From: Rhodospirillaceae bacterium
GTDB taxonomy: Bacteria; Pseudomonadota; Alphaproteobacteria; Rhodospirillales; Casp-alpha2
DNA: 64,000 nucleotides
Direction of reading: 5' to 3'
Assembly (NCBI GenBank): GCA_002686255.1
Contig: NZAZ01000116.1
Span: 1-64,000, forward strand
Below are positions 46,557 to 50,265 of the stretch, in pieces. The translations under genes and the position numbers were made by a program. Each line of letters starts with the position of its first letter. Position 1 is the first letter of the stretch. The notes below the pieces were generated by a model, which was not told where the DNA came from, did not search any database, and saw only the letters and a program-made list of their open reading frames with translations.

Positions 46557-46889
46557 ATGCTGAAATACAAGGGCTATACCGCCAGGGTGGAGCTCGACGA
46601 AGAGGCCGGCGTGCTGCACGGCGAGGTCATCGGCACGCGGGACGTCATCACCTTTCAGGCCGACAGCGCCAAGAACGCCATTGCCGAGTTCCGCGCTTCC
46701 GTGGACGACTACCTGGACTTTTGCGCCGAACGGGGCGAAGCGCCGGAGAAGCCACTGAGCGGCCAGTTCCTGGTCCGCGCGACGCCAGAGCTTCACCGCC
46801 GCGTCCACGTCGCCGCCAACGCCGAAGGCATAAGCGTCAACGCCTGGCTGACGAGGACGCTGGAAGAGGATACGAAGGAGTTTGGGTGA
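46557..46889 (+). CDS. hicB: HicB-family antitoxin
   Basis: A 110-aa protein with the HicB partial RNase-H-like domain at the N-terminus (LKYKGYTARVELDEEAGVLHGEVIG) and a ribbon-helix-helix DNA-binding end (FLVRATPELHRRVHVAANAEGISVNAWLTRTLEED). The start is ATG after an AGGA-like SD 5-10 nt upstream. It completes the hicAB pair and probably binds the palindromic operator ahead of hicA. Confidence 0.85.
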   Translation: MLKYKGYTARVELDEEAGVLHGEVIGTRDVITFQADSAKNAIAEFRASVDDYLDFCAERGEAPEKPLSGQFLVRATPELHRRVHVAANAEGISVNAWLTRTLEEDTKEFG

Positions 46890-46910
46890 AGTGTGTGGCA
46901 GCTAATGACC

Positions 46911-47058
46911 GATACTGTTGATAAAGTCGGTCGGAGACGGTGTTCGCGCAACAAAAGAATATAGATCAATGTTTCAGTGAAACATTATTGCCGTGACGGG
47001 GTAATTCGCGAATCAATCTTTCGTCCGAACGGCTCGAAAATACTTTATCAACAGTATA
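46911..47058. mobile_element. 147-bp inverted-repeat element between hicB and the SEC-C gene
   Basis: Perfect 16-bp terminal inverted repeats at 46912-46927 and 47042-47057 (ATACTGTTGATAAAGT and its complement) enclose a central palindrome AATGTTTC-AGT-GAAACATT near 46968-46986. It has no gene. It lies in the 210-nt gap between two convergent genes and may be a small MITE-like element or a bidirectional hairpin. No target duplication was resolved. Confidence 0.6.
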
Positions 47059-47099
47059 GACCCAAAACTCGTAAATTCTTGGGCTTTGCGTGTTTTGGG

Positions 47100-48284
47100 T
47101 CAGTCGTCGAATTTGCCTGGCACCTTCGAGTGGTTCAACACGGAGAACCAAAGCTGGCTGATCTCGGGGTGCTGCCGCATAACGGCTTTCGAATCATCTG
47201 GGCTGGCAAACTCTGGTCGGTTAATCGCAGTTAAGTATGAAGTTTGACCGGGTTCTACATCGTCATTTCCGACGTAGTGATTCGGGTTGTTAGTAAGAAC
47301 GATAAAAGCAGGCGGATAGGGGTTATCCGAAGACTGGTCTTCTTCAACTTTCCGAATGGTTTTAGCAGCGGTCTTGAACCAATCTTTATCAAATACCTCT
47401 TTGTCATCGGGTGGCATATTCACATCGATAAAAATGATCCGATCATGTTCCGCATCCTTCAACAGTGCCCGTTGAAGCTGGCGATAAATGTTGGCTTTGG
47501 CTTCATCTGGTTTCTGACGTTCGCCTTCTTTCCCCAACAGACCTGGTCGTCCACATGTTTTAGCCTCAACTGAGAACTTGCAGTCATGCTTTTTATGAAA
47601 TGCCGTAAGTTCAGTATGCGTCCGTGAACCGTCGCGCTCGTCTTCCAATTCGACTTCAAACCCAGCACGCAACAAGGTTGCGATAACATAAAGCTCGTAA
47701 CGTGCTCCCTGGAATTGATCTGCATTTTTAAGGCGTTCGAGCATCGTCGGATGGAGTGCGGACAGATGTTCTAACGCGTATAAATCATAGGCAATCGAGA
47801 GATACGCTTTCGCAGAGCCAGTTACGATACCGCTGAACAGGCCGTCAGCATTTCTTTCCTTGCTGTTCTCTTGCTGCCAATCACAAAAATCATGATACCA
47901 CTGGAGGATCGGGTGACGCTCCTCATAAGGCTTTGCGATCTCGGCATTTCCCCATTCGCCACTGAGTGTTTCTTTGAGATAGTCGGTTAGAAAATCAATG
48001 GGAGTTTTCCAGTTCTTGTTCCACTTCAAAGTGGTTCCGATGGCAATTACTCTATATCCATTCATCTCAGCAGAAACCAACGGGGGAACATGACCGAAAT
48101 TGCGTCTTTCCTCCTCATTCTTCAATTGAGCATTAAGAAACGCTTTCCGTGTTTCCTCAGGGAGGTCAAGGAATTGAACGCGTTTAGGCTCGCGGCGTTG
48201 CGCGTCGCATGTCGCTCCACAACAATGTTTAAATTTATGACCGCTGCCACAGGGACATCGTGCATTACGGCTGACTTTTGTCAT
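47100..48284 (-). CDS. SEC-C zinc-motif protein with possible PD-(D/E)XK nuclease core
   Basis: A 394-aa protein not recognised by name. Residues 9-23 are a SEC-C zinc motif, RCPCGSGHKFKHCCG (Cys10, Cys12, Cys21, Cys22). Residues 190-245 hold FQGARYELYVIATLLRAGFE, then HTELTAF, then KFSVEAKT, with Glu197, Glu225 and Glu240-Ala-Lys242 in the order expected for a PD-(D/E)XK nuclease fold (Glu on a helix, acidic residue on a strand, ExK on the next strand). The rest is helical and charged. The gene is visibly AT-richer than its neighbours, and follows the dnaJ remnant and the RelE/NadS pair, with which it may be cotranscribed. A DNA- or RNA-targeting defence role is inferred, not shown. Confidence 0.6.
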   Translation of the reverse strand: MTKVSRNARCPCGSGHKFKHCCGATCDAQRREPKRVQFLDLPEETRKAFLNAQLKNEEERRNFGHVPPLVSAEMNGYRVIAIGTTLKWNKNWKTPIDFLTDYLKETLSGEWGNAEIAKPYEERHPILQWYHDFCDWQQENSKERNADGLFSGIVTGSAKAYLSIAYDLYALEHLSALHPTMLERLKNADQFQGARYELYVIATLLRAGFEVELEDERDGSRTHTELTAFHKKHDCKFSVEAKTCGRPGLLGKEGERQKPDEAKANIYRQLQRALLKDAEHDRIIFIDVNMPPDDKEVFDKDWFKTAAKTIRKVEEDQSSDNPYPPAFIVLTNNPNHYVGNDDVEPGQTSYLTAINRPEFASPDDSKAVMRQHPEISQLWFSVLNHSKVPGKFDD

Positions 48285-48324: not shown

Positions 48325-48399
48325 CCTACTCCTCCAAGTCCTCCCACAACTCCATCATCTTGTTTAAGAAGCCCGCCGCCTGGGGGCCGTGGGTTTCGG
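48325..48399 (-). pseudogene. Remnant of a dnaJ 3' end (75 bp)
   Basis: About 60 of 75 positions match the end of the intact dnaJ (49122-49196) with no gaps. In the dnaJ frame it reads [15 protein letters not shown] and then a TAG stop, against [15 protein letters not shown] in the intact gene; many differences are conservative, so it was under coding selection in its source. It lies at the other side of the RelE/NadS pair and supplies the last ~11 codons and stop of the NadS-like gene in another frame. Confidence 0.8.
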
Positions 48400-49106: not shown

Positions 49107-49122
49107 GTCCAGGGAGAACCCC

Positions 49123-50265
49123 CTACTCCTTCAAATCCTCCCAAAGCTCACGCACCTTGCCGAAGAAGCCGTGCGCCTGGGGGCTGTGGGTTTCGGCGGC
49201 ACTTTCGGAGTCGAATTCCTTCAAGAGCTCCTTTTGCCGGGGCGTCAGGTTGACCGGCGTCTCGACCATCGCCTGCACGAACATGTCGCCCCGGGCGCCG
49301 GAGCGCAAAATCGTCATGCCCTTGTTCTTGAGCCGCAACTGGTGTCCCGTCGGCGTGCCGGCGGGAAGGGTGACCCTGGCCAGCTTGCCGTCGACGGTCG
49401 GCACCTCGATGGCGCCGCCCAGGGCCGCCGTGGTCATCGAGATCGGCACCCGGCAGTAGATGTCGGCGCCGTCGCGCTGAAACAGCCGGTGCGCCTTGAG
49501 GCTGAGGAAAATATAAAGGTCGCCCGGCGGCGCGCCCCGGAGCCCGGCCTCGCCCTCGCCGGCCAAACGGATGCGGGTGCCGTCCTCGACCCCCTCGGGG
49601 ATGTTGACGGACAGCTTCTTTTCCTTGTTGACCCGGCCCTGGCCGCCGCAGTTCCGGCACGGGTCCTTGATCACCTCGCCGCGGCCGCCGCACGACGGAC
49701 ACGTGCGCTCGACGGTGAAGAACCCCGATTGCGTGCGCACCCGGCCGTGGCCGCCGCAGGTGCCGCACGACGTCAGACTGGCGCCGGCGGCGGAGCCTGT
49801 GCCCTTGCAGTCCCCGCACGCCACCGACGAGGGGACGCGGATATCGGCCTGTTTGCCCTCGAACGCCTCTTCGAGGGAGACTTCCATGTTGAAACGGAGG
49901 TCGGCGCCCTTGCCGGCGGCGGCCGTCTCCTGGGCCCGGTGGCCGCTGAAATCGCCGAACATTTCGTCGAAGATGTCGGCGAACCCGGAGGCGAAGTCGC
50001 CGCCGAATCCACCTGGACCGCCGCCGGCGCCGGCGGCTTGTTCGAAGGCGGCGTGGCCGAAACGGTCGTAGGCGGCCCGTTTCTGGTCGTCCTTGAGAAC
50101 CTCATAGGCTTCGGAAAGGTTCTGGAATTTCTTTTCGGCCTGCTTGTCTCCGGGGTTTTTGTCCGGATGGTATTTTACCGCCAGCTTGCGGTAGGACTTC
50201 TTGATGTCCTCCGGCCCGGCGTCGCGGCCGACCCCGAGTGTCGCGTAATAGTCCTCTTTAGCCAT
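49123..50265 (-). CDS. dnaJ: Chaperone protein DnaJ
   Basis: The 380-aa co-chaperone of DnaK (stimulates its ATPase and delivers unfolded clients). J domain with HPDKNPGD (residues about 33-40), Gly/Phe region ([17 protein letters not shown]), four CxxCxGxG zinc repeats ([32 protein letters not shown]) and the C-terminal peptide-binding domain. The ATG is 1 nt from a MITE-like element and no SD of its own remains; the start overlaps the stop of a short ORF within that element (TAATG). Its 3' end is partly duplicated at 48325-48399. Confidence 0.98.

What the first reader, a model, noticed from the sequence alone, without database searches (positions are those of the whole stretch)
47100..48284. 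SEC-C zinc motif joined to a possible PD-(D/E)XK nuclease in an AT-rich island gene
Seen: SEC-C motif at residues 9-23 and a Glu197 / Glu225 / Glu240-x-Lys242 pattern in a predicted alpha-beta core (ELYVIATLLRAGFE ... KFSVEAKT). The gene is AT-richer than its neighbours and lies in a region of TA modules, repeats and a dnaJ remnant. Known: SEC-C motifs occur in SecA and in many proteins of unknown role; PD-(D/E)XK cores are frequent in restriction and defence. Inference: an uncharacterised defence-type nuclease or effector, possibly cotranscribed with RelE/NadS.
Basis: partly seen in the sequence, partly recalled or inferred. Interest (0 to 1): 0.7.

Follow-up and report, generated by a model that had tools for sequence, protein, structure and literature searches.

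The report
SEC-C nuclease family, shortened copy
The gene encodes a probable nucleic-acid-cutting protein carrying a small SecA-type metal-binding motif; it belongs to a rare, unnamed family that travels between bacteria, and this copy has lost the family's tail domains, so a phage-defence role is plausible but unproven.

Summary
The ORF is real. Residues 5-22 are a SEC-C motif. Glu197, Glu225, Glu240 and Lys242 are identical in 39 of 39 aligned members, and the predicted fold has the element order of a PD-(D/E)XK core. A profile comparison with Mrr-type nucleases scores 35.7, against at most 15.8 for 20 shuffles and 10 unrelated families. The nuclease inference is supported, with limits: spatial convergence of the residues was not measured, the top structural matches (Z 7.9) are acetyl-CoA carboxylase domains, and nine canonical Mrr sequences alone give only 9.3%.

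The window copy is 394 aa, against 471-594 in the other 38; it lacks the helical tail and the Tudor-like barrel most members have. It keeps the catalytic and metal-binding residues. It is AT-rich cargo in a variable dnaJ-dapB island; congener G001 has relE-nadS there without it, so RelE/NadS is no fixed partner. The family is rare, on plasmids, in a prophage-like contig and beside recombinases. Some neighbours are defence genes, but pooled counts do not clearly exceed a random control. Defence is the best guess, not shown.

The parts
47100..48284 (-). SEC-C / PD-(D/E)XK protein gene, 394 aa
   Evidence: ORF; relatives found by translated searches
48219..48272 (-). SEC-C metal-binding motif, residues 5-22 (C10, C12, C21, C22; ligand role recalled)
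   Evidence: Pfam PF02810, 35.5 bits; CxC-x8-[CH][CH] found by pattern in 36 of 39 rows
47715..48095 (-). conserved alpha/beta region before the nuclease core, residues 64-190, no family match
   Evidence: invariant G64, H124, H173 among others; predicted secondary structure
47289..47714 (-). PD-(D/E)XK-like core, residues 191-332: H191-206, E209-213, E226-230, E235-243, H259-275, E281-287, H301-315, E326-332
   Evidence: AlphaFold2 model, mean pLDDT 83.6, pTM 0.83; profile match to Mrr
47694..47696 (-). codon of Glu197 (motif I helix)
   Evidence: E in 39 of 39
47610..47612 (-). codon of Glu225 (motif II)
   Evidence: E in 39 of 39
47559..47567 (-). codons of Glu240-Ala-Lys242 (ExK, motif III)
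   Evidence: E and K in 39 of 39
47103..47288 (-). end of the protein, residues 333-394, stopping where relatives run on for 80-201 residues
   Evidence: alignments; full-length model of L009
48325..48399 (-). second copy of the dnaJ 3' end, upstream of the gene
   Evidence: direct repeat D2, 80% identical to 49122-49196; also in congener G001
46912..47057 (.). 146-bp hairpin-like element with perfect 16-nt inverted ends, 3' of the gene
   Evidence: repeat I3; one copy found in the held genome; RNA fold of 46905-47110 z -4.2

Best explanation
The gene is a horizontally acquired, C-terminally shortened and diverged member of an unnamed family of stand-alone, mobile-element-borne nucleases. Shown: a SEC-C metal-binding motif at the N-terminus and an invariant E / E / E-x-K set. 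Well supported: a PD-(D/E)XK core related to Mrr-type restriction nucleases. Inferred: it cuts DNA with a divalent metal; the SEC-C knuckle and, in full-length relatives, the Tudor-like barrel and helical tail hold or license the nuclease on its target or on a partner protein; and the net effect is to restrict incoming DNA (phage or plasmid) much as a self-sufficient type IV enzyme does, since no partner gene recurs beside it. The window copy lacks the barrel and tail and may be a minimal version or a gene on the way out.
For: E197, E225, E240, K242 identical in 39 of 39. AlphaFold2 order alpha-beta-beta-beta-alpha-beta around them; block pLDDT 93 at motif I (191-200), 80 at motif II (221-230), 95 at 231-240. 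Mrr_cat hits 4 of 39 members (best E 0.0019) and PDDEXK_9 1 of 39 (0.0032); in the opened cases over residues 191-248 and 162-246. hhalign of the core versus 18 Mrr segments: probability 66.9, score 35.7; 20 shuffles at most 15.74; 10 unrelated families at most 15.83; VEAK lies on the Mrr V-Q-A-K motif. Structural matches include PaqCI, CdiA-CT, BsmI, HindIII, NucC, McrBC, Hjc, Can2 and XisH (that these are PD-(D/E)XK proteins is recalled); BsmI reaches Z 7.0, 3.2 A over 136 residues, with the full-length relative. Rarity: 5 of 317 genomes of the order, 4 of 385 of the class, 6 of 398 of the phylum, own genome counted each time and some matches partial. Gene absent from the dnaJ side of 8 congeners opened; GC3 47% against 69-87%. 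Relatives on plasmids, one beside a type I restriction operon; on two viral-collection contigs, one behind ORFs that read like tail genes; beside serine recombinases in 7 of 50 loci; one 4 nt after HmaC.
Against: Foldseek gave no match at E <= 0.001, and the top VIA rows are yeast and human acetyl-CoA carboxylase domains, Z up to 7.9, above the nucleases and within the range the tool calls common. With only nine canonical Mrr sequences the hhalign probability falls to 9.3, and motif II is two columns out of register in the 18-sequence alignment. The window protein itself has no Mrr or PDDEXK hit. The block holding K242 (241-250) has mean pLDDT 67. Pooled PADLOC hits near relatives (102 and 17 families) bracket a random control (35). 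No partner gene recurs among ORFs of 70 aa or more. The Hma-linked relative lacks SEC-C. The window copy keeps 33 of 40 otherwise conserved positions, the lowest score (L017 next with 34 of 41), though its losses are mostly conservative.
Confidence: 0.5

Rival explanations
1. The protein is a PD-(D/E)XK nuclease that serves the mobile element itself (plasmid or prophage upkeep, transfer, recombination, or attack on competing elements) rather than defending the cell.
For: Relatives lie on plasmids typed as conjugative, beside integrases and serine recombinases, and behind tail-like genes. No fixed partner.
Against: Also found next to defence operons: Hma and type I restriction. Of the six ORFs around the window gene scanned with Pfam none is an integrase.
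Confidence: 0.2
2. A suicidal or toxin-like nuclease directed to the ribosome or to RNA by the SEC-C motif, acting by abortive infection.
For: The SecA metal-binding domain, which carries this motif, interacts with 70S ribosomes (PMC6620043, abstract and passages read). SEC-C is N-terminal in nearly all members and the window gene sits among toxin-antitoxin genes.
Against: Two of 39 members (L017, L030) lack the motif in the frame read. Mrr-type enzymes are DNA nucleases (recalled). No small partner recurs, though ORFs under 70 aa were not compared.
Confidence: 0.15
3. Not a nuclease: an alpha/beta domain of another kind (for instance like the acetyl-CoA carboxylase AC4-AC5 domains) with a conserved acidic and lysine patch that serves another purpose.
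For: Highest structural Z-scores go to acetyl-CoA carboxylase domains, 7.9 at 4.2 A over 157 residues.
Against: Invariant E / E / E-x-K with the right order of elements and a specific profile match to Mrr; several PD-(D/E)XK enzymes in the same list.
Confidence: 0.1
4. The window copy, unlike its relatives, is a decaying remnant without activity (compatible with any of the above for the family).
For: It ends at 394 aa where 38 of 38 aligned others run on for 80-201 residues, has the second-longest end branch, 1.22, keeps fewest conserved positions, and no convincing trace of the missing domains remains nearby.
Against: The frame is open for 394 codons, the stop falls at the domain boundary, and the four catalytic residues and the CxC/CC residues are kept.
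Confidence: 0.35

Closest known systems
Mrr / Mrr_cat (PF04471), restriction nucleases of the PD-(D/E)XK superfamily
   Same: Helix with FE/YE, then strands ending in a V-E/Q-x-K motif; weak but specific profile match
   Different: Motif II Glu instead of Asp and two columns out of register; added SEC-C, N-terminal region and, in most members, Tudor-like barrel; in the opened example below the Pfam cut-off
PD-(D/E)XK type II restriction enzymes (BsmI, PaqCI, HindIII)
   Same: Core fold matched at Z 4.5-7.0
   Different: No recurrent methyltransferase partner seen; sequence matches to PDB chains are confined to SEC-C stretches
SEC-C motif proteins (SecA C-terminus, YchJ, CBASS E2-type models of PADLOC)
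   Same: CxC-x8-C[CH] knuckle
   Different: In 7 of 8 NCBIfam models and in SecA the motif sits at the C-terminus by profile or chain position; here it is N-terminal to a nuclease-like core
Hma system (helicase, methylase, ATPase; PMC8565338, passages read)
   Same: One family member (L030) follows HmaC by 4 nt, with HmaB before it
   Different: The published Hma is a three-gene operon; this member lacks SEC-C; no Hma gene was seen near the window gene

Membership tests
PD-(D/E)XK superfamily | acidic / acidic / (D/E)xK catalytic set conserved in the family | tested here: met
   E197, E225, E240, K242 in 39 of 39
PD-(D/E)XK superfamily | alpha-beta-beta-beta-alpha-beta core carrying those residues | tested here: met
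   order of elements in the AlphaFold2 model
PD-(D/E)XK superfamily | catalytic residues converge in one site | not testable with these tools
   no model coordinates are given out
PD-(D/E)XK superfamily | structural match clearly above unrelated folds | tested here: inconclusive
   nucleases Z about 4-7, but acetyl-CoA carboxylase domains up to 7.9
Mrr_cat (PF04471) | score above the curated cut-off | tested here: not met
   no hit for the window protein; opened member L026 18 bits against 21; best of 39 members E 0.0019, bits not opened
Mrr_cat (PF04471) | profile-profile relation | tested here: inconclusive
   score 35.7 versus controls at most 15.8, probability 66.9, but 9.3 with nine canonical members only
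SEC-C motif | CxC-x8-C[CH] knuckle above the Pfam cut-off | tested here: met
   35.5 bits against 20.4
Known anti-phage defence protein (PADLOC) | match to a model outside the SEC-C motif | tested here: not met
   five models matched, all within residues 2-29
Anti-phage defence, role | protection of the cell from phage | not testable with these tools
   needs an experiment
RelE/NadS toxin-antitoxin module | gene travels with the module | tested here: not met
   congener G001 has the relE-nadS stretch without the gene

The most novel reading that the evidence does not exclude
A new single-protein restriction or defence system: a zinc-knuckle-tethered Mrr-like nuclease whose Tudor-like barrel reads modified DNA or a partner, spread on plasmids and prophages and able to plug into other systems such as Hma; the window copy is a natural minimal version that works without the reader domain.
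Probability: 0.2. Interest if true: 0.65.

Novelty: new variant of a known kind. Interest (0 to 1): 0.42.

Why it matters
Proteins labelled only 'SEC-C domain-containing protein' in plasmid records turn out to carry an invariant nuclease-type residue set and, in most full-length members, a Tudor-like barrel. If they restrict foreign DNA, this adds a compact, partner-free nuclease family, gives the SEC-C motif a role outside protein export, and offers a clean test: active-site mutant against wild type in a laboratory strain.

Tried and rejected
Phage records gave no match. The first scan of viral contigs with the single protein found nothing; the alignment found 2 loci. PHROGs matched three families without a description (the one opened lies on the SEC-C motif). 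Foldseek against PDB and BFVD gave no match at E <= 0.001. Absence of a particular fold from those lists is not used as evidence.

Rejected: RelE/NadS as fixed partner. Rejected: pooled PADLOC counts as proof of defence (against 87; each table shows at most 25 families). Rejected: a frameshifted C-terminal domain nearby; tblastn of 38 C-terminal pieces over 44.0-49.3 kb gave only short scattered matches, best E 0.054. Left open: the 146-bp hairpin element as cause of the truncation.

Paper searches for SEC-C with defence, endonuclease, REase, PDDEXK, nuclease/phage, zinc/MBD and restriction endonuclease showed no title or abstract start on this family in the held library. Passages of three listed papers were opened: PMC4619425 mentions a sec-C metal-binding protein beside tnpT of a Tn3-type transposon on a Xanthomonas plasmid (whether it is of this family was not checked), PMC6344862 uses SEC for chromatography, PMC8875376 names YchJ. 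The other listed papers were not opened. This says nothing about papers outside the library.

Dropped rows: six of the 44 genome loci were left out of the 39-row alignment: L012, L029, L046, L051, L052 (frames broken or in pieces) and L047 (no start codon found). For neighbour scans 189 of 221 selected ORFs were given (32 left out: 27 of L003-L008, three long ones, two pieces of relatives); for the control 98 of 103 ORFs, from the 17 of 20 requested stretches that exist. For the Mrr profile 18 of the 30 fetched loci were used.

Full report
Observation. The ORF at 47100-48284 on the minus strand encodes 394 aa. Pfam finds SEC-C at residues 5-22 with 35.5 bits and nothing else above its cut-off. 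The NCBIfam and PADLOC matches lie in residues 2-33, over the SEC-C motif. Gene GC is 47.5%, GC3 47.3%, while the eight neighbouring genes computed have GC3 of 69-87%. HicA/HicB lie downstream on the plus strand; RelE and a NadS-like regulator lie upstream on the same strand.

Relatives. Searching without the SEC-C motif found, own genome aside, one match (G009, same genus, 41%) among 61 near genomes, eight plasmid records, no phage record and, with an alignment, 44 loci in genome contigs. Their titles name Alpha-, Beta- and Gammaproteobacteria, Planctomycetota, Nitrospira, Nitrospinota, Spartobacteria, Kiritimatiellae, Desulfovibrio and Obscuribacterales. L009 and L002 are the same gene by length and score. 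Profile searches of whole genomes gave 5 of 317 in the order, 4 of 385 in the class and 6 of 398 in the phylum, own genome included and some matches partial or weak. The family is rare and patchy.

Active-site pattern. In the 39-row alignment (window plus 38 of the 44 loci) E197, E225, E240 and K242 are identical in 39 of 39, as are H124, H173 and K276. A first seven-row set agrees. The knuckle pattern was found in 36 of 39 rows; L019 was cut by my choice of start (its match begins before it), and L017 and L030 lack the motif in the frame read. Pfam likewise finds SEC-C in 36 of 39.

Fold. The window protein modelled with mean pLDDT 83.6 and pTM 0.83. Helix 191-206 bears E197, strand 226-230 follows E225, strand 235-243 bears E240 and K242, then come helix 259-275 and strand 281-287: the order of a PD-(D/E)XK core (recalled). 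Confidence is uneven: block means are 93-95 for 191-210 and 231-240, 80 for 221-230, and 58-67 for 241-260. VIA-align ranks acetyl-CoA carboxylase domains first (Z up to 7.9, 4.2 A over 157), then PaqCI 5.5, CdiA-CT 5.4, BsmI 5.1, XisH family 4.6, HindIII 4.6, NucC 4.1, McrBC 4.0, Hjc 4.0, Can2 3.8. With the full-length relative BsmI reaches 7.0 at 3.2 A over 136 residues, beside acetyl-CoA carboxylase rows up to 7.6. Fold comparison alone is therefore inconclusive. Sequence profiles decide more: Mrr_cat hits 4 and PDDEXK_9 1 of 39 members, in the opened cases over residues 191-248 and 162-246. hhalign of the core against 18 Mrr segments gives score 35.7 and probability 66.9, with 20 shuffled versions at most 15.74 and 10 unrelated families at most 15.83. 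Against it: nine canonical Mrr sequences alone give 9.3%, and motif II is two columns off.

What the window copy lacks. The other 38 proteins are 471-594 aa and run on for 80-88 residues (four: L033, L034, L035, L039) or 147-201 residues (34) past the window protein's end. The model of the 546-aa relative (pLDDT 87.5) shows a barrel at about 406-459, matched mostly by Tudor domains (Z 5.2-6.1, rmsd 1.2-2.8 A), and a helical tail. L035, L039 and the plasmid members L004-L006 lack the barrel but keep the tail. The window protein stops at the boundary. It keeps 33 of 40 positions conserved elsewhere, the lowest score, with mostly mild changes, and has the second-longest end branch (1.22). It may be a working minimal form or a decaying gene.

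Island. Eight congeners were opened on the dnaJ side (G001-G007, G009). None matches the window over 47100-48284, and the protein and profile searches found no match in G001-G008; G009's relative lies on another contig. In six (G002, G003, G005, G006, G007, G009) dapB-side sequence follows dnaJ within about 0.15-3.5 kb; G004's stretch shows no dapB match. G001, the closest by dnaJ (91%), has dnaJ, the relE-nadS stretch and the dnaJ 3' copy, then dapB about 0.45 kb on, without the SEC-C gene. There nadS is open while relE reads across two frames. Most simply, the gene entered apart from relE-nadS; loss in G001 is not excluded.

Context elsewhere. Among ORFs of 70 aa or more within about 6 kb in 50 loci, the largest recurrent cluster is serine recombinases (7 loci), then ABC transporter ATPases (4), an RHE_PE00001-type protein (3) and response regulators (3); no partner recurs. 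Relatives sit next to a type I restriction operon on a Caballeronia plasmid, on plasmids typed as conjugative, behind ORFs that read like phage tail genes in Labrenzia (L049) and a viral-collection contig with ORFs of the same lengths (L118, the tail label being my reading), and, without SEC-C, 4 nt after HmaC with HmaB before it (the 1170-aa ORF in the HmaA position was not scanned). PADLOC scans of 91 and 98 neighbours named HmaC, CBASS cyclase and phospholipase, reverse transcriptases, SoFic, mad3 and methylases. Of ten chosen neighbours scanned singly, six had no PADLOC match at 1e-5. The random control of 98 ORFs gave 35 families, including mad3 twice, methylases and look-alikes of housekeeping genes. 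Defence linkage is thus suggestive in single loci, not proven overall.

Mechanism. I take the family to be self-sufficient nucleases of the type IV kind. The SecA metal-binding domain interacts with ribosomes and is needed for SecB binding (PMC6620043, abstract and passages), so here SEC-C could dock the nuclease to a protein or ribosome; Tudor-like barrels bind peptides or nucleic acids (recalled). These steps are inference.

Noticed in passing
window 48325-48399 and 49122-49196: The dnaJ 3' end is duplicated (75 nt, 80% identical) on both sides of relE-nadS; congener G001 has the same arrangement, suggesting a small element that inserts at the dnaJ 3' end and brings its own copy.
   Followed up: partly
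window 46912-47057: 146-bp element with perfect 16-nt inverted ends that folds into one long hairpin (z -4.2 for 46905-47110), one copy found in the held genome, 42 bp past the stop codon of the SEC-C gene.
   Followed up: partly
window 46557-46889; L113 2870-3202: A hicB homologue (81% DNA identity) occupies the same dnaJ-dapB interval in congener G007, so this interval looks like a repeated landing place.
   Followed up: no
L004 7070-7897 and L005 7041-7844: A conserved protein of about 270 aa with CxxC and SHxxPK motifs lies directly upstream of the SEC-C nuclease on an Agrobacterium and a Rhizobium plasmid.
   Followed up: no
L030 4211-11530: A SEC-C-less relative follows HmaB-HmaC by 4 nt, a possible added gene of an Hma-type operon.
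   Followed up: partly
model mb761e2d1b621, residues 177-379: The core resembles a central domain region of eukaryotic acetyl-CoA carboxylase (Z up to 7.9); whether that region is of PD-(D/E)XK descent was not examined.
   Followed up: no
L108 about 1650-2480: In congener G001 relE reads across two frames beside an open nadS (real or assembly error not known).
   Followed up: no
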